From contig NZ_WJOK01000027.1 of NCBI RefSeq assembly GCF_009649785.1, positions 1 through 64,000 on the forward strand: DNA of 64,000 bases, given 5' to 3'. Below the pieces are notes generated by a model. That model worked only from the letters and a program-made list of their open reading frames with translations. It was not told where the DNA came from and did not search any database. A program made the position numbers and the translations under genes. Each line of letters starts with the position of its first letter. Positions within the stretch are counted from its first letter, which is position 1. This document shows positions 29,197 to 35,674 of this stretch, piece by piece. The DNA comes from Agrobacterium tumefaciens (GTDB taxonomy: Bacteria; Pseudomonadota; Alphaproteobacteria; Rhizobiales; Rhizobiaceae).

Positions 29197-30704
29197 GCAC
29201 GGAAAACCCCTCTTCCTGGCAAGACTTGCCAACGGTGGTCGAGATCACCGAGGAAAGTCGCCGGCGCAACCAGAACGCCCGCAACATGGCGGCAATCCTG
29301 GAGGACATCGTCGAGACCGACGAGCCGGCAGGCCCCAGCAGGGCAAAGGCGACTGCCATGCCGGTCGAACAGCTGCTGACCGGTTTCCACTTCGGCGGCG
29401 AGGAGGTTCCGACACTTGTGCAATCGGCAGCTCCCCTTCTCAACCTCGCACATCTGCTGCGCTTCAGCGATGCCGAGCCGGATCCCGACCAGCTTCGCCG
29501 CGCCTGCGTTGAAGCAATTACACGCTATGAACGCGACCTCGCCTCCGCCCGCATCAGCCCCGAGCGGGCAAGGGCTGCGCATTATGTCGTCTGCGCGACG
29601 GTCGATGACGTCGTTCTCAGCAAGCCTTGGGGTGTGCGGGCAGGCTGGGCGCGCTCCGGGCTCGTTTCCACGTTCCACAATGACGTCACTGGCGGCGACC
29701 GGGTTTTCGACATTCTCGACCATTTCCACCAGTCGCCCGGCGCCAACAAGGATCTGCTGCTTCTGATCTATCTGTGCTTGTCGCTGGCTTTCGAGGGACG
29801 AACCCGCGTTTCACCGAAAGGAGCGCTCGAGCTTTCACGCATCCGCGACAGCCTCTACAAAACGCTGATCGGCCAATATGGCGCCTTCGAACGGGAGCTT
29901 TCTCCGCATTGGAAAGGCGTCGATGCCCGACATACGCCATTGCGCGCGATGGCGGCGCTCTGGACCCTGCTGTCGCTGATGGCGCTCGCCTTCGCGCTCG
30001 GTTATCTCTTCTTCACGCTGTCGCTCAACAGCGCATCCGATGTCACCTTCGAAAGACTTGCTCATCTGCCGCCGAACGAAACACCGAGCGTGTTGATCGC
30101 AAGCCCTCCTGCACCAACGCCGCCGCCAATTGAAGTGGAAACTCCCCGCGTCGTTGATCCACCCAAAATCGTGGAGCCGAGGCAACCCTCCCGGCTTGAA
30201 AAGCTGATGGCCTTCCTGCAGCCAGAAGTCGACAGGAAGCTCGTGACCCTTGCGGATGTGAACGGGCGGCTGCGGGTTCGCATCAACAATTCGGGCCTGT
30301 TCACGACAGGCAGCGCCGATGTCAGCCCGCAGTTCCGCGATCTCATCCAGCGTATCGGCGGCGCGCTTGCGGCTGAGAAATTTCGTGCGGTGGTCATCGG
30401 TTATACCGACACCGTGCCGATCAAGACGGTGGAGTTTCCATCGAACTGGCACCTTTCCGAGGCGCGCGCCAAGGCCGTTGGAGACATTCTTTCCCAATTC
30501 ACCGGCCCTGAAGCAATCCTGACCGAAGGCCGGGCCGACAGCGACCCGATCGCCGACAACAAGACGGAAGAAGGCCGTCAGATAAACCGCAGAACAGAAA
30601 TCATGGTCCTGACCAATCCCGATGAAAAACTGAGCGATGCCGGCATTCTCTCGCCGCCCATACAGAACAGTCCGGGACAGCAGCCGGGAGAGACCCAGCC
30701 ATGA
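29193..30704 (+). CDS. tssL: TssL (ImpK) with C-terminal OmpA-like domain (503 aa)
   Basis: TssL is the inner-membrane partner of TssM. The N-terminal cytoplasmic DotU/IcmH domain (about 50-240) has LLNLAHLLRF and CATVDDVVLS. One transmembrane helix lies near residue 255 (LWTLLSLMALAFALGYLFF). A Pro-rich periplasmic linker and an OmpA-like peptidoglycan-binding domain (about 355-480, with VVIGYTDTVPI and NRRTEIMVL) follow. With ATG at 29193 residue 14 is Thr (in DLPTVVE), matching the Thr14 that PpkA phosphorylates in A. tumefaciens TssL. This supports both the start and the regulatory switch. It overlaps tssK and tssM by 4 bp each. Confidence 0.95.
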   Translation: MSTENPSSWQDLPTVVEITEESRRRNQNARNMAAILEDIVETDEPAGPSRAKATAMPVEQLLTGFHFGGEEVPTLVQSAAPLLNLAHLLRFSDAEPDPDQLRRACVEAITRYERDLASARISPERARAAHYVVCATVDDVVLSKPWGVRAGWARSGLVSTFHNDVTGGDRVFDILDHFHQSPGANKDLLLLIYLCLSLAFEGRTRVSPKGALELSRIRDSLYKTLIGQYGAFERELSPHWKGVDARHTPLRAMAALWTLLSLMALAFALGYLFFTLSLNSASDVTFERLAHLPPNETPSVLIASPPAPTPPPIEVETPRVVDPPKIVEPRQPSRLEKLMAFLQPEVDRKLVTLADVNGRLRVRINNSGLFTTGSADVSPQFRDLIQRIGGALAAEKFRAVVIGYTDTVPIKTVEFPSNWHLSEARAKAVGDILSQFTGPEAILTEGRADSDPIADNKTEEGRQINRRTEIMVLTNPDEKLSDAGILSPPIQNSPGQQPGETQP

Positions 30705-33700
30705 ATCCATTGAGCTATTTTTATACGATCCGCTCCTATGTCGAGAGCTATGCGGCCCTCGTCGGACGACGTTTCCTGTCGCTTTTATGGGTGATAGCGC
30801 TCTGCGTCGTCATCTGGTTCTACGGCTATCTGATTGCGCTCGGCGATTTCAAGCCGCTTGGAACGGTGCAGGCCCGGCTCATCGCCATCGGCATCATCGT
30901 CGCCATCTGGCTGGTCTACATCGTCGTCACGATCTACCGCGGACGCAAGCAGGACAAGGAACTCGTCGACAGTATCGAGCGCGAGGCGCTGGCCAATCGG
31001 CAGGCGGAAATCGGCGAAATCCAGACACGCCTGAAGGAAGCGCTCGCTCTCTTGCGACGCGTCACGAAAAAGCGCTTCGGTTATATTTACGACCTGCCCT
31101 GGTATGTGATCTTCGGCGCCCCCGGTTCCGGCAAGACGACGGCACTCACCAATTCCGGCCTGCAATTTCCGCTTGGCGATGCGCTCGGCGAAAATGCGGT
31201 GAAGGGCATTGGCGGCACGCGCAACTGCAACTGGTGGTTCGCCGATGAGGCGATCCTGATAGACACCGCCGGCCGCTATACCACGCAGGACGATCTCGAC
31301 GGATCCTCAAAGGCCGGCTGGGAAGGTTTTCTCAGCCTCCTGAGGCGATATCGCCGTTCGCAGCCGATCAACGGCGCATTGGTTACCCTATCCATCCCCG
31401 ATCTGCTCAACCGTGATCCCGAAGAACAGCGGCAGGAACTGCGCTCCATCCGTCAGCGGCTTTCGGAACTCGACGAATATCTGCGCGCTCGGGTCCCGGT
31501 CTATATCGTTCTGACGAAGGCCGATCTGCTGCATGGTTTCGTGGAGTTTTTCGACGGTTTCAACAAGACCGATCGCCAGCAGGTTTGGGGCACAACCTTC
31601 AAGCTGGATGAGAGCTACTCCGCCGAGAACCTGCCGCAGCGCCTGACGGAAGAATTCGAGCTGCTGCAGCAGCGGGTCGATGCCATGCTGATCGAACGCC
31701 TGCAGCAGGAACAGAATGCGGAGATACGCGGACGTATCTTCCGTTTTCCGGCCGAGCTGGCGCGTCTGAAGGACCGCCTGCATGAAGCGCTTGCCGAGCT
31801 TTGCGCAAGTTCACCTCTCATTGAGCCCCCGCTTCTGCGCGGCGTTTATTTAGCGTCGGGAACGCAGCCGGAAACGGAAAGATCTCCCGCAGCCCCCAAA
31901 ACCCGCCGGAGCTACTTCCTCTCGCGGCTGTTCAAGGATGTCATCTTTCCCGAAGCCGCATTGGTGATGCGCGACAAACGCCTTTCCGGGCGGCAATTGC
32001 TGGTGCGCCGCATTGCCTATGGCGCATCCGCCGCGGCGGTCGCCATTGTCTTCACTGGCTGGATTTTCACCTATTTCGCCAATACACAGGCGCTCGCCGA
32101 AGCGGATCGCAAACTTGGCGCTTATGAGCAGCTCGTTCAGGGAATTCCCGTACGAGACGTCGCAGATGCGGATTTCCTGCGCATCCTCCCCGCGCTCGAC
32201 AATCTGCGCGATGCCAATTCCGGCTTTGCCCGCGAACGCATGTGGAATGTCAGCTTCGGTCTCGATCAGGAAGAAAAGATTGCCGGGCGCCAGCGTGATG
32301 CCTATCAGCGCGCGCTCAACGCCCTGCTGCTGCCGCGCATGATCGTGCAGCTGCAAAAGCAGCTTAAGGACGAGAAGGATGTCACCCGCACGTTCAATTC
32401 GCTGAAACTCTATGGAATGCTGGGCGGGATGGGTGCACTGGACCGCGATTTCCTGACCGTGCAGACGCATCAGATGTTCGCATCGCTTTACCCTGGTGAT
32501 GGAAGGGCTGCGGTGCGAGAAGCGCTGGACCAGCACGCAAAGGCGCTGGCCAACGGCGTGCTTGCACCGATCGAGCTCGATGCGCGGCTCATCGCTACCG
32601 CCCGCGAAACGATCCGCGATCACGCGATTAGCACACGCGCCTACGATATTCTCGCCGGTCTTCCGCAGGTGCGCGAATTGATGGAATGGACACCCGCGGC
32701 GGCTTTCGGTCCTCTGGGGGAGCGGGCTTTCGAGCGTCGCAGCAAAGCGCCTATGGCGGAGGGCATAGAGGGCCTTTTCACTGCGGATGGATATCACCGT
32801 GTCGTCATTCCGCAAGTCGCTCATGCCGCCCGCATCGCGCTTTCCGAAGGCTGGGTGCGCGGTTCTGATGATGCCATCAAGGGCGCGACCGTGGAGCAGG
32901 TGGCGCAGGCCGCGCTGCAAATCTATTTCGACCGGTTTGAGAAAAAATGGGCTGATATGCTGGCCGACCTTCGGGTCAAACCGTCCCAGACCCTCGGCGA
33001 CGCAGTGGAAACCACTCGTGCGCTCGCCAATGAGCGCAATATAGTGATGGAGGCCGCCAGATCGATCTCGGAGGCGACCGATCTCCGCCCCGGAGCAAAC
33101 CCCGCCACCCTCGCCTCCACTGCGGAAGGCGACGCAACCACAGCCGTTATGGTGGCCTCGGTGAATGCGTCCGATCCCTATGCGAGACTGCGCGACATGC
33201 TGGCGACAAAAGGCGCAGCCACAACGGGCGAGCAGGCCAATGGCGACAAGACCGGTGGTTCGCCGTCGGAACAGTTGCTCGCGCATTTCAAGCTGCTGAA
33301 CGAACAGCTTGCCCGCTCGGCAACAACCTCCGATGAAGTCGCCAAGGTGTTCGACGTGGACAGCCAGCTCACCAAGGCCAATCAGGACCTGCTGCAGCAG
33401 GCCCGCGAATTGCCGGCACCGCTCGACGTCTGGGTGGCAGGCGTGGCGGCGGATGTCGGCTCGCTCGCAGTGAAGTCCGCTCGCAGCCGCATCGCCGAAC
33501 TCTGGACATCAGATTCAGCCTCCCTGTGCTCTTCGATCGTCACCGGTCGTTATCCCTTCGACCGGACCTCCGCGCGCGATGTCGCCATTGCGGATTTCAC
33601 GCGTCTCTTCGGGCCGGCAGGGGTTTTCCAGACTTTCTTCAAACAGCGCATGGAACCGTTTGTCGACAAGACGACGACCCCATGGAGCTGGAAGGGTACC

Positions 33701-34180
33701 TTTGGCGCGGCCGGCCTTCCCAGCAGCGCAGTCGCCCAGTTCGAAAATGCCGACAAGATTTCGCGCGCCTTTTTCCCGAATGGTAGCGAGACGCCGGCGG
33801 TTTCGATCAATGTCAAACCCGTCTCCCTCACCAATGCCTCCAGCGCGGTGATGCTGGAGATCGAGGGCGAGCGGGTCGTTTATTATCATGGTCCGATCCA
33901 GGCGAAATCGATCACCTGGCCTTCGCGCGAAAACACGGCAAGCCTGTCACGCATCGCCTTCCAGCCCGGCGGCTGGCAGCAGGCCAAAACCGAAAATGGC
34001 GACTGGTCGCCCTTCCGCCTGTTCGACGGTGCCGATATCGAGAACCAGTCGGGTGATCTGCTGCGGGTGCGGTTTGAGAATGGCGGACAGGCTGCCGAAT
34101 TCGATATTCAGTTCGGCTCGGTTCTCAATCCGTTCAAGCTGGATGCAATTGCCAGCTTCGCCTGCCCCGCGCAGTTCTAG
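30701..34180 (+). CDS. tssM: TssM (ImpL/IcmF), T6SS membrane-complex protein (1159 aa)
   Basis: TssM spans the inner membrane and reaches the outer membrane side, forming the T6SS channel with TssL. Two N-terminal helices lie near residues 28-50 and 63-80, and a third near 435-455 (AYGASAAAVAIVFTGWIF). Between them is the cytoplasmic NTPase-like domain with an intact Walker A GAPGSGKTT at about residues 139-147 and a DTAGRY motif. The large periplasmic part follows, ending in the usual beta-rich C-terminal domain (WSPFRLFDGADIE, LRVRFENGGQAAEFDIQFGS). The intact Walker A agrees with the ATP-dependent TssM described in A. tumefaciens. Confidence 0.96.
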   Translation: MNPLSYFYTIRSYVESYAALVGRRFLSLLWVIALCVVIWFYGYLIALGDFKPLGTVQARLIAIGIIVAIWLVYIVVTIYRGRKQDKELVDSIEREALANRQAEIGEIQTRLKEALALLRRVTKKRFGYIYDLPWYVIFGAPGSGKTTALTNSGLQFPLGDALGENAVKGIGGTRNCNWWFADEAILIDTAGRYTTQDDLDGSSKAGWEGFLSLLRRYRRSQPINGALVTLSIPDLLNRDPEEQRQELRSIRQRLSELDEYLRARVPVYIVLTKADLLHGFVEFFDGFNKTDRQQVWGTTFKLDESYSAENLPQRLTEEFELLQQRVDAMLIERLQQEQNAEIRGRIFRFPAELARLKDRLHEALAELCASSPLIEPPLLRGVYLASGTQPETERSPAAPKTRRSYFLSRLFKDVIFPEAALVMRDKRLSGRQLLVRRIAYGASAAAVAIVFTGWIFTYFANTQALAEADRKLGAYEQLVQGIPVRDVADADFLRILPALDNLRDANSGFARERMWNVSFGLDQEEKIAGRQRDAYQRALNALLLPRMIVQLQKQLKDEKDVTRTFNSLKLYGMLGGMGALDRDFLTVQTHQMFASLYPGDGRAAVREALDQHAKALANGVLAPIELDARLIATARETIRDHAISTRAYDILAGLPQVRELMEWTPAAAFGPLGERAFERRSKAPMAEGIEGLFTADGYHRVVIPQVAHAARIALSEGWVRGSDDAIKGATVEQVAQAALQIYFDRFEKKWADMLADLRVKPSQTLGDAVETTRALANERNIVMEAARSISEATDLRPGANPATLASTAEGDATTAVMVASVNASDPYARLRDMLATKGAATTGEQANGDKTGGSPSEQLLAHFKLLNEQLARSATTSDEVAKVFDVDSQLTKANQDLLQQARELPAPLDVWVAGVAADVGSLAVKSARSRIAELWTSDSASLCSSIVTGRYPFDRTSARDVAIADFTRLFGPAGVFQTFFKQRMEPFVDKTTTPWSWKGTFGAAGLPSSAVAQFENADKISRAFFPNGSETPAVSINVKPVSLTNASSAVMLEIEGERVVYYHGPIQAKSITWPSRENTASLSRIAFQPGGWQQAKTENGDWSPFRLFDGADIENQSGDLLRVRFENGGQAAEFDIQFGSVLNPFKLDAIASFACPAQF

Positions 34181-34220
34181 GGACGGAACGGAATGGTGAG
34201 TTTCAAAGGAGGGGATTAGA

Positions 34221-34262
34221 ATGAAGGCAGGCACGACACCGACAGCGGGTCATCGCAACTGA
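34221..34262 (+). CDS. 13-codon leader cistron coupled to tagF/pppA
   Basis: In the 81-bp gap after tssM there is an ATG at 34221 with a strong AGGAGGGG ribosome site, followed by 13 sense codons and TGA. The TGA overlaps the ATG of tagF/pppA (TGATG), which itself has no ribosome site. Translation of the downstream gene probably depends on re-initiation after this short cistron. The peptide (rich in Thr, Gly, Ala) resembles nothing I know. Confidence 0.55.
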   Translation: MKAGTTPTAGHRN

Positions 34263-35674
34263 TGGCCGATCAGGCATCAAGGTCCACGCAAACGGCGACG
34301 GAAAGCGATCGCATCGGTTTCTTCGGCAAGGTCCCAAGTCATGGCGATTTCATCTCCGATGGGCTCGAGCGGGAATTGATCGGTACCTTTGACGGCTGGA
34401 TGCGATCCGGCATGCACGCCGGTGCGGATATGTTTACGGGCCGATGGCCCGAAATATTCTCTTCGTCGCCACCCATACGCTTCATCATTGAGCGCGGCAT
34501 ATGGGGAAACTGCGCCTATGTCGGTGTACTGGTGCCGAGTGCGGACCGGGTGGGACGCAAATATCCGCTCGCCATCATCGCGCAGCTCAATGGCTTCCGC
34601 GAACATCCACGAAGCCTCTATCTCGACGACACCTGGTTCATGGCCGCGGAGGCGCTGGCGGAGACATCGATGACCCGCGATTTCGACATCTCGCGGTTTA
34701 TTACTTCGATCAAAAAACTACGTCTGCCAAAATCGCGGGAAGAGGAGGATGTGCCGGAAATGGTGCGCGACCGTATGCCGACGAGCCTCTGGTGGTATAT
34801 CGATCCCATCAGCCGTCGTGCCCGCGGCCTCAAATTTGACGGCAAACCCAAAGCCTCCGATTTCCTGCGTCTCTTTAGCGACATGCCGGGCAAAGGCGGC
34901 GAGGACCGTTCAACGCCAGCGCCAATTCCAGCAACGGCGCAGGAGGAAACAAAACAGCAAATGCCGCCCGTGGCGCCAGCGCCTGCGCCGGCAGCGAAAC
35001 AGCCGTCATCTGTGACCTACAGCTATGCCACACACCCTGGAACGCGGCTTTCCCTGAATGCGGACGCTCTTTTCGTTTCCCAGACACCTTCCCTCTTCGC
35101 CATAGCGGATGGACAAGGTAATTCGCACAGCGCTGCAGAGGCCGCCCGTCTCGCCACGAATATTCTTGCGGAAACGCCAGATGCCGAAAACCCGGAGATG
35201 ATGGCGCAACAGATCAGGGGAAGGCTTGGCACAATCAACAGCCTGCTCCTCTCCCGCCAGACGACCGGTGCCGATGTCAGGCCGATGGCCAGCGTCGTCA
35301 TAGCTTCGATCATCTCGCGCAGGCTGAGCGTCCTGTGGTCTGGTGATGCGCGCGCCTATCTCCTGAAAAACGGCACCATGCACCAGCTTTCGCGCGATCA
35401 CGTCGTTGTCGGCATGAAAAAGCAACTCTCGCAATGTGTCGGGCTTTCCCAGCAGTTCCGGCCGGACATCGTTTTCGAGGAGTGGGGTTTGCAGGACAGG
35501 GTCCTGCTGTGCAGTTACCCGCTGGTGCAGATCCTCCGGGACCGCGCCATCGCCGAGATCGTCTTCAACACCCCGGTCAAGGATTGCGCCAATGCCCTGG
35601 TCCAGGAAGCTCTCATCGAAAACGCCCGCGAGAATATAAGCGCTATTGTGATTGGAAACCGGCGTGAACAATGA
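34262..35674 (+). CDS. tagF-pppA: TagF-PppA fusion: T6SS repressor domain plus PP2C phosphatase (470 aa)
   Basis: Residues ~15-210 are a TagF (DUF2094) domain, opening with IGFFGKVPSHGDFISDGL and containing PIRFIIERGIWGN and WWYIDP. After a Pro/Ala/Gln linker (about 220-255) the C-terminal half is a PP2C-type Ser/Thr phosphatase with the metal-binding Asp in FAIADGQGN and a later LWSGDARAYLL. In A. tumefaciens the same fusion counteracts T6SS activation: TagF represses post-translationally and PppA removes PpkA phosphates. It likely initiates by coupling to the leader cistron. It overlaps ppkA by 11 bp. Confidence 0.92.
   Translation: MADQASRSTQTATESDRIGFFGKVPSHGDFISDGLERELIGTFDGWMRSGMHAGADMFTGRWPEIFSSSPPIRFIIERGIWGNCAYVGVLVPSADRVGRKYPLAIIAQLNGFREHPRSLYLDDTWFMAAEALAETSMTRDFDISRFITSIKKLRLPKSREEEDVPEMVRDRMPTSLWWYIDPISRRARGLKFDGKPKASDFLRLFSDMPGKGGEDRSTPAPIPATAQEETKQQMPPVAPAPAPAAKQPSSVTYSYATHPGTRLSLNADALFVSQTPSLFAIADGQGNSHSAAEAARLATNILAETPDAENPEMMAQQIRGRLGTINSLLLSRQTTGADVRPMASVVIASIISRRLSVLWSGDARAYLLKNGTMHQLSRDHVVVGMKKQLSQCVGLSQQFRPDIVFEEWGLQDRVLLCSYPLVQILRDRAIAEIVFNTPVKDCANALVQEALIENARENISAIVIGNRREQ

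What the first reader, a model, noticed from the sequence alone, without database searches (positions are those of the whole stretch)
34221..34262. A 13-codon leader cistron appears to control translation of TagF-PppA
The gap between tssM and tagF/pppA holds an ATG with a strong AGGAGGGG site, 13 codons and a TGA overlapping the tagF ATG, which has no ribosome site of its own. Almost all other genes of this operon overlap directly. A dedicated mini-cistron before the negative regulator could set the ratio of repressor/phosphatase to secretion machine, or respond to translation state.
Basis: partly seen in the sequence, partly recalled or inferred. Interest (0 to 1): 0.6.

Follow-up and report, generated by a model that had tools for sequence, protein, structure and literature searches.

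The report
Conserved mini-gene feeding ribosomes to TagF-PppA
A tiny 13-codon reading frame with a very strong ribosome site sits just before the gene for a brake on an Agrobacterium toxin-injection machine; its position and end are kept across the genus while its peptide drifts, so translating it, rather than its product, is probably what matters.

Summary
After tssM (ends 34180) come AGGAGGGG (34207-34214), ATG (34221), 13 codons and a TGA whose last base is the first base of the tagF-pppA ATG (34262). tagF has no ribosome site better than shuffled sequence.

All 27 genomes of the genus with full-length tagF-pppA (own included; 39 searched) have SD + ATG + 13-16 codons + TRATG overlap (24 TGATG, 3 TAATG). 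The peptides drift: no codon periodicity overall (5.3, 6.4, 5.1 changes per site), pN/pS about 1.2 in seven pairs, at most weak constraint in one clade. Yet no in-frame stop occurs and the overlap never breaks. Of 40 loci in other genera, none has this architecture; one has a possible 5-codon analogue.

Best reading: an Agrobacterium-specific mini-cistron that delivers ribosomes to tagF by termination-reinitiation. In 29 of the 40 other-genus loci a tagF start lies within 34 nt of tssM; in Agrobacterium the gap is 77-134 nt, probably too long for tssM to feed it. Translation and coupling are inferred, not measured. I found no support for a sensing or regulated role. It is a new member of a known kind, the ribosome-delivering short upstream ORF.

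The parts
30701..34180 (+). tssM (IcmF), the preceding gene; its stop is 40 nt before the leader ATG and 81 nt before the tagF ATG
   Evidence: Pfam IcmF-related_N, IcmF-related, IcmF_C
34181..34206 (+). spacer between the tssM stop and the leader's ribosome site; not repeated elsewhere in the genome
34207..34214 (+). AGGAGGGG, very strong Shine-Dalgarno site of the leader
   Evidence: GGAGGGG exact in 19 of 27 congeneric loci, close variants in the other 8
34221..34262 (+). 13-codon leader cistron (MKAGTTPTAGHRN, stop TGA)
34260..34264 (+). TGATG: leader stop overlapping the tagF start by one base, the proposed termination-reinitiation site
   Evidence: TRATG in 27 of 27 congeneric loci
34262..35674 (+). 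tagF-pppA, fused T6SS negative regulator and PP2C phosphatase, 470 aa
35652..36551 (+). downstream kinase gene (ppkA-like), overlapping tagF-pppA

Best explanation
The leader is a ribosome-delivery mini-cistron. 30S subunits bind the strong SD at 34207-34214, translate 13 codons, terminate at TGA, and a fraction reinitiate at once on the overlapping ATG of tagF-pppA, which attracts few ribosomes of its own. The peptide matters little or not at all; the act and place of termination are what selection keeps. In Agrobacterium this replaces the probable ancestral arrangement, in which tagF lies close behind tssM and could take ribosomes from it. TagF-PppA output then depends on leader initiation times reinitiation efficiency, probably giving a modest, fairly constant supply of the T6SS repressor/phosphatase that depends little on tssM translation. 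Shown: anatomy, conservation, drift of the peptide, genus restriction in the sample. Inferred: translation of the leader, the reinitiation step, the effect on TagF level, and the evolutionary replacement.
For: All 27 congeneric loci have SD + ATG + 13-16 codons + TRATG overlap. In the leader frame 0 of 381 codons are stops, against 47 of 354 and 15 of 354 in the other two frames (the leader was defined as an open frame, so the finding is that one exists in every locus). In the 12 codons shared by all, 202 parsimony changes would be expected to make about 4.9 stops and made none (P about 0.008). The T of the stop never changes, against means of 5.1-6.4 changes per leader site; the next base changes 3 times and is only G or A. 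The leader site is stronger than tagF's in 27 of 27 loci (mean -11.0 against -2.7; shuffles -3.2). Peptide: pN 0.157, pS 0.130 over 7 pairs (30 and 8 changes); tagF 0.041 and 0.280. The tagF start is predicted more paired than the leader start in 25 of 27 loci (mean unpaired 0.36 against 0.53). Literature: about 20 nt between genes almost abolished coupling in six pairs (abstract of PMC10666635); a review proposes short ORFs whose only job is ribosome delivery (PMC12548453 section 11).
Against: No expression, ribosome-profiling or peptide data. Reinitiation without an SD near the second start may be inefficient: SD removal substantially reduced it in PMC6728339 (passage). Some coupling over longer gaps exists: another passage there cites a synthetic operon with a 50-bp gap in which upstream translation raised downstream translation fivefold, so tssM may still help. 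De novo initiation at an SD-less ATG is not excluded. One clade (10 loci) gives pN/pS of about 0.76 over all its pairs and keeps an R-H-x-x-A-like core in several members, so weak peptide constraint there is possible. The statistics use parsimony on related genomes and are rough. Genus g107 often manages with an SD directly before tagF and no leader. Deleting atu4331 (tagF-pppA) did not significantly change Hcp secretion in one condition (PMC3702570 passage).
Confidence: 0.72

Rival explanations
1. Regulated valve, uof-fur-like: an sRNA or protein binds the leader SD under some condition and so shuts off tagF-pppA without touching the tagF start.
For: The leader SD is unusually strong and conserved, and leader and tagF could be controlled together. 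Four ar14-family sRNAs with CCTCC motifs exist in the genome.
Against: Predicted ar14 pairing with the leader (-16.9 to -19.8) is no better than with other gene starts, several of which are stronger. No CsrA homologue (PF02599) in the genome; no Rfam match at 33800-34600. Nothing identifies a specific binder.
Confidence: 0.12
2. Sensing leader peptide (stalling or attenuation type): ribosome pausing on particular codons changes tagF or downstream expression.
For: It is a short leader before a regulator gene; such uORFs exist (start of the abstract of PMC12121999 seen in a listing). One clade keeps an R-H-x-x-A-like core in several members.
Against: 27 different peptide strings in 27 genomes (L020 and L024 differ only by the first Met); pN/pS about 1.2 in seven pairs; no codon-position periodicity over the genus; mean fold z -0.46, with 3 of 27 loci below -1.8; no consensus pair within the leader; no sigma-70-like promoter or Rfam element.
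Confidence: 0.04
3. Frameshift or misplaced start: the real TagF begins at 34221 and ribosomes shift frame at the leader end.
For: The strong SD lies only 54 nt before the tagF ATG, as if for an N-terminal extension.
Against: In 10 of 27 loci the tagF frame itself has a stop 6-21 nt before the ATG. The last sense codon varies (GGC, AAC, GAC, GTC, CGC), with no shared slippery site. The one-base stop-start overlap is in all 27.
Confidence: 0.03
4. Decoy: the leader mainly captures ribosomes and lowers tagF expression, and tagF is translated at a low level by independent SD-less initiation.
For: Endogenous TagF-PppA is described as 'albeit at a low level' in A. tumefaciens (PMC5995506 discussion passage). 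tagF lacks an SD.
Against: A decoy would not need its stop to overlap the tagF ATG exactly, yet this holds in 27 of 27 loci.
Confidence: 0.09

Closest known systems
Ribosome-delivering short upstream ORF (uORF) coupled to a downstream gene (review PMC12548453 section 11, which cites mycobacterial uORFs and MIRUs)
   Same: Short ORF, stop overlapping the downstream start, proposed function only to bring a ribosome
   Different: Here inside an operon rather than in a 5' UTR or a mobile repeat; one-base TRATG overlap rather than the 4-nt overlap of MIRUs; the sequence is not repeated in the genome
uof-fur of Escherichia coli (leader ORF immediately upstream of fur; passages of PMC7867234; the coupling and RyhB details are recalled)
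   Same: Short leader ORF directly before a regulator gene, thought to be needed for its translation
   Different: uof is longer (recalled: 28 codons), has its own promoter, and is an sRNA target (recalled); no such regulator is known here
tap-repA of plasmid R1 / repY-repZ of ColIb-P9 (recalled, not read)
   Same: Short leader cistron whose translation is required for a downstream gene of low output
   Different: Those are controlled by antisense RNA and RNA structure; no conserved structure over the leader found here
Bicistronic designs of synthetic biology (review remark in PMC12548453; details recalled)
   Same: Strong SD and short first cistron ending on the next start codon
   Different: Natural, and without an SD embedded in the first cistron for the second gene
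Ordinary one-base TGATG gene overlaps (PMC6728339, PMC10666635)
   Same: Same junction and presumed termination-reinitiation
   Different: The upstream partner is a 13-16 codon frame with a drifting peptide, not a gene

Membership tests
Translationally coupled short upstream ORF (ribosome-delivery uORF) | short ORF with its own ribosome site directly before the gene | tested here: met
   ATG with predicted 16S pairing of -8.1 to -13.3 kcal/mol in 27 of 27 loci
Translationally coupled short upstream ORF (ribosome-delivery uORF) | stop overlaps or nearly touches the downstream start | tested here: met
   TRATG one-base overlap in 27 of 27 loci
Translationally coupled short upstream ORF (ribosome-delivery uORF) | peptide sequence not under selection | tested here: met
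   pN/pS about 1.2 in 7 pairs and no codon periodicity over the genus; weak constraint possible in one clade, pN/pS about 0.76
Translationally coupled short upstream ORF (ribosome-delivery uORF) | leader translation is required for downstream translation | not testable with these tools
   needs reporter fusions or ribosome profiling
uof-fur-type sRNA-controlled leader | an sRNA or protein represses through the leader's ribosome site | tested here: inconclusive
   only ar14 sRNAs and CsrA were examined: ar14 pairing not special, no CsrA
Attenuator / stalling leader peptide | conserved peptide or codon motif, or alternative RNA structures | tested here: not met
   residual R-H-x-x-A-like core in part of one clade
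MIRU-like mobile coupling repeat | repeated copies in the genome | tested here: not met
   34181-34270 has only its own copy; the other 6 matches are 14-22 bases with E 1.5 or more
Programmed frameshift | open shifted frame and conserved slippery site | tested here: not met

The most novel reading that the evidence does not exclude
A genus-specific translational valve: Agrobacterium took tagF-pppA out of the tssM coupling chain and put it under a dedicated leader with an exceptionally strong ribosome site. The amount of T6SS brake can then be turned down on its own, by an sRNA, an RNA-binding protein or ribosome availability acting on the leader, while the machine genes on the same mRNA are still made.
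Probability: 0.13. Interest if true: 0.7.

Novelty: new member of a known kind. Interest (0 to 1): 0.45.

Why it matters
It is a clean natural case in which evolution keeps the act of translating a short frame (site, start, open frame, stop position) while the peptide drifts, so ribosome delivery by a mini-cistron can be tested at one well-studied gene. It also gives a simple hypothesis for why endogenous TagF-PppA is at a low level (PMC5995506 passage), although it shares an operon with the T6SS machine that is transcribed from the tssA-clpV intergenic promoter region (PMC3702570 passages).

Tried and rejected
Functional peptide: not supported, with possible weak constraint in one clade. RNA structure at the junction: folds of 27 loci gave mean z -0.46, with L014, L025 and L026 below -1.8; the consensus fold of 15 of the congeneric sequences has 8 pairs, all inside tagF and none in the leader. 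Rfam: nothing at 33800-34600. Internal promoter: none of sigma-70 type at 33900-34500; the two terminator-like hits lie in tssM and tagF, not in the gap. Mobile repeat: no second copy. CsrA: absent from the genome. ar14 sRNA targeting: pairing not better than at other starts. Frameshift: rejected. Literature: searches (62 and 63 joined type VI secretion with coupling/leader terms; one found nothing) listed no paper whose title or abstract start describes this leader. Seen as passages only: PMC5995506, PMC3702570, PMC6728339, PMC7867234. PMC12548453: passages and section 11. PMC10666635: abstract and section 7. Others: listing only.

Rows set aside: L034 (G028), a phosphatase-domain-only match, was left out of the 27; 11 of the 39 genomes had no match. 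L142 is a second match in the same genome as L141. L102 (Neorhizobium galegae) was not tested because tssM and tagF-pppA are annotated there in pieces. L100, L101 and L103 (three plasmid records) were looked at but are not in the count of 40. L146 is flagged only because that script misplaced the tssM end (gap 99 there, 70) and an ATG inside tssM opens a frame; its tagF has its own strong SD. One search printed minus-strand loci unreversed; one search corrected this. under-scores ATGATG loci because it took the first ATG; redid it. The 7 pairs were chosen by me from 23 printed; several of the other, more distant pairs have pS above pN.

Full report
OBSERVATION. One search confirms every element: AGGAGGGG at 34207-34214, ATG at 34221, 13 codons, TGA at 34260-34262, and the ATG of tagF-pppA sharing the A at 34262. 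tssM ends at 34180, so tagF starts 81 nt after it. Pfam confirms TagF_N plus PP2C, IcmF/TssM upstream and a protein kinase downstream. The window lies in a genome whose genus includes named Agrobacterium strains (one search names contigs such as A. tumefaciens B6, A. leguminum, A. salinitolerans, A. rosae and A. bohemicum; their lengths equal those of the unnamed congeneric contigs).

CONSERVATION IN THE GENUS. 39 genomes of the genus were searched; 28 had a match, of which one (G028) is only a distant phosphatase domain, and 11 had none. In the other 27, own genome included, the tssM-tagF gap was read after orienting each locus. All 27 have a strong SD, an in-frame ATG, 13-16 codons (9, 10, 4 and 4 loci for 13, 14, 15 and 16, by the ATG my script picked) and a one-base stop-start overlap, TGATG in 24 and TAATG in 3. 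The distance from the tssM stop to tagF is 77-83 nt in 26 and 134 nt in one.

THE FRAME IS KEPT, THE PEPTIDE DRIFTS. All 27 peptide strings differ, though L020 and L024 only by the first Met. On a tagF tree, parsimony counts means of 5.3, 6.4 and 5.1 changes per site at leader codon positions 1, 2 and 3, so there is no coding periodicity; tagF, just downstream, shows the usual third-position excess. Pooled over seven pairs, leader pN is 0.157 and pS 0.130 (30 and 8 changes), against 0.041 and 0.280 for 70 tagF codons. Over all pairs within three clades, pN and pS are 0.408 and 0.311 (12 loci), 0.386 and 0.506 (10 loci), and 0.514 and 0.462 (5 loci). The second clade keeps an R-H-x-x-A-like core in several members, so weak peptide constraint there is not excluded. 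Yet the T of the stop never changed, and the next base changed three times and is only G or A. The 12 codons common to all leaders took 202 changes, of which about 4.9 would be expected to make a stop, and none did. The other two frames of the same stretch hold 47 and 15 stops in 354 codons each, in 25 and 14 of 27 loci. These numbers are rough because the genomes are related and parsimony undercounts.

RIBOSOME SITES. The leader's best in-frame ATG has a predicted 16S pairing of -8.1 to -13.3 kcal/mol (mean -11.0). The tagF ATG has -0.1 to -4.8 (mean -2.7), no better than shuffled sequence (mean -3.2); the leader is stronger in 27 of 27. Predicted unpaired probability averages 0.53 at the leader start and 0.36 at the tagF start, lower at tagF in 25 of 27. 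A consensus fold of 15 sequences places no pair in the leader.

OUTSIDE THE GENUS. I examined 40 loci of other genera: 22 from 394 family genomes (30 matches, 8 of them in the genus), 14 new ones from 63 genomes of genus g107 (16 matches) and 4 new ones from 397 genomes of the order (10 matches). None has an SD-led frame ending in TRATG on the tagF start. Two were flagged: L056, a possible 5-codon frame with a 4-nt ATGA overlap, and L146, where the script misplaced the tssM end, the frame starts inside tssM and tagF has its own strong SD. In 29 of the 40 an in-frame tagF start lies 34 nt or less after the tssM stop, often about 10 nt (which start is used is not known). The other 11 are L048, L068, L146 and eight g107 loci with a gap near 100 nt; in those eight and L048 a moderate SD (-5.8) directly precedes tagF. 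So in this sample the leader is a genus-level feature, and the ancestral layout was probably close spacing to tssM; the polarity is inferred.

UNIQUENESS IN THE GENOME. GGAGG-ATG-TRATG with these spacings occurs 103 times in the own genome (11 for the reversed pattern); 100 were listed and 21 of these are in frame without a stop. The tagF leader is the only one of the 21 whose overlapped ATG is the sole possible start of an ORF over 100 aa. Leaders with weaker ribosome sites or other lengths were not scanned. The gap DNA has no second copy.

MECHANISM. Coupling falls steeply with distance; about 20 nt almost abolished it in the six pairs tested (abstract of PMC10666635). tssM at 77-134 nt should therefore feed tagF poorly, whereas the leader at -1 nt should feed it well. 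Against a strict view, a passage of PMC6728339 cites a synthetic operon with a 50-bp gap where upstream translation still raised downstream translation fivefold. The last 15 nt of an upstream gene, fused to a long reporter, sufficed for coupling in both pairs tested (PMC10666635 section 7); so no long upstream signal is needed, but a 13-codon frame as such was not tested there. I therefore read the leader as a device that brings ribosomes to an otherwise poor start. Because SD removal reduced reinitiation in PMC6728339 (passage), an SD-less junction may give a modest yield. This would fit the statement that endogenous TagF-PppA is at a low level in A. tumefaciens (PMC5995506 discussion passage), but that link is inference. 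Leader translation and coupling themselves were not measured. Deletion of atu4331 (tagF-pppA) had no significant effect on Hcp secretion in one condition (PMC3702570 passage), so the physiological weight is open.

REGULATION. I found nothing to support a sensor or switch: no genus-wide conserved peptide, no RNA family, no CsrA, no special pairing with the four ar14 sRNAs, and no sigma-70-type promoter at 33900-34500. The regulated-valve reading stays open, because other regulators were not tested.

KNOWN KIND. A review states that short upstream ORFs may serve solely to deliver a ribosome to the next gene, with mycobacterial MIRUs as one case (PMC12548453 section 11). uof-fur in E. coli is the nearest named example (passages of PMC7867234; its coupling and sRNA control are recalled). 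This is therefore a new, well-conserved member of a known kind. It is unusual in sitting inside an operon, in a peptide that drifts while its frame is kept, and in serving a T6SS negative regulator.

Noticed in passing
base 34259 (position -3 from the tagF ATG) and the same position in L008-L033: The base before the leader stop is C in 27 of 27 loci with zero changes on the tree, although the other 13 third positions changed 3-8 times; with TGATG any other base would create an in-frame ATG, GTG or TTG one codon before tagF. Multiple testing makes this only suggestive.
   Followed up: partly
L131-L135, L137, L138, L140 (genus g107), tssM-tagF gap: In these relatives the gap is about 100 nt and carries an inverted repeat (variants of GTAGGACCCGGC ... 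GCCGGGTCCTAC) right after tssM, with a moderate SD directly before tagF and no leader; possibly a processing or stability hairpin.
   Followed up: no
L056 (G300), tssM-tagF gap: A possible independent analogue: a 5-codon ATG frame whose stop overlaps the tagF start by 4 nt, behind GAGGAAAGCCGA.
   Followed up: no
leader peptides of L019-L027 and L030: One clade keeps an R-H-x-x-A-like core in several members and has pN/pS of about 0.76 over all its pairs, a hint of weak peptide or nucleotide constraint.
   Followed up: partly
L102 (Neorhizobium galegae VafX2 plasmid pNgVX): tssM is annotated as a shorter gene followed by two hypothetical proteins, and tagF and the phosphatase as two genes rather than one fusion.
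   Followed up: no
G000:C2:3271, C62:34373, C46:151592, C46:237495: Four ar14-family sRNA genes, each with repeated CCTCC (anti-Shine-Dalgarno-like) motifs.
   Followed up: partly
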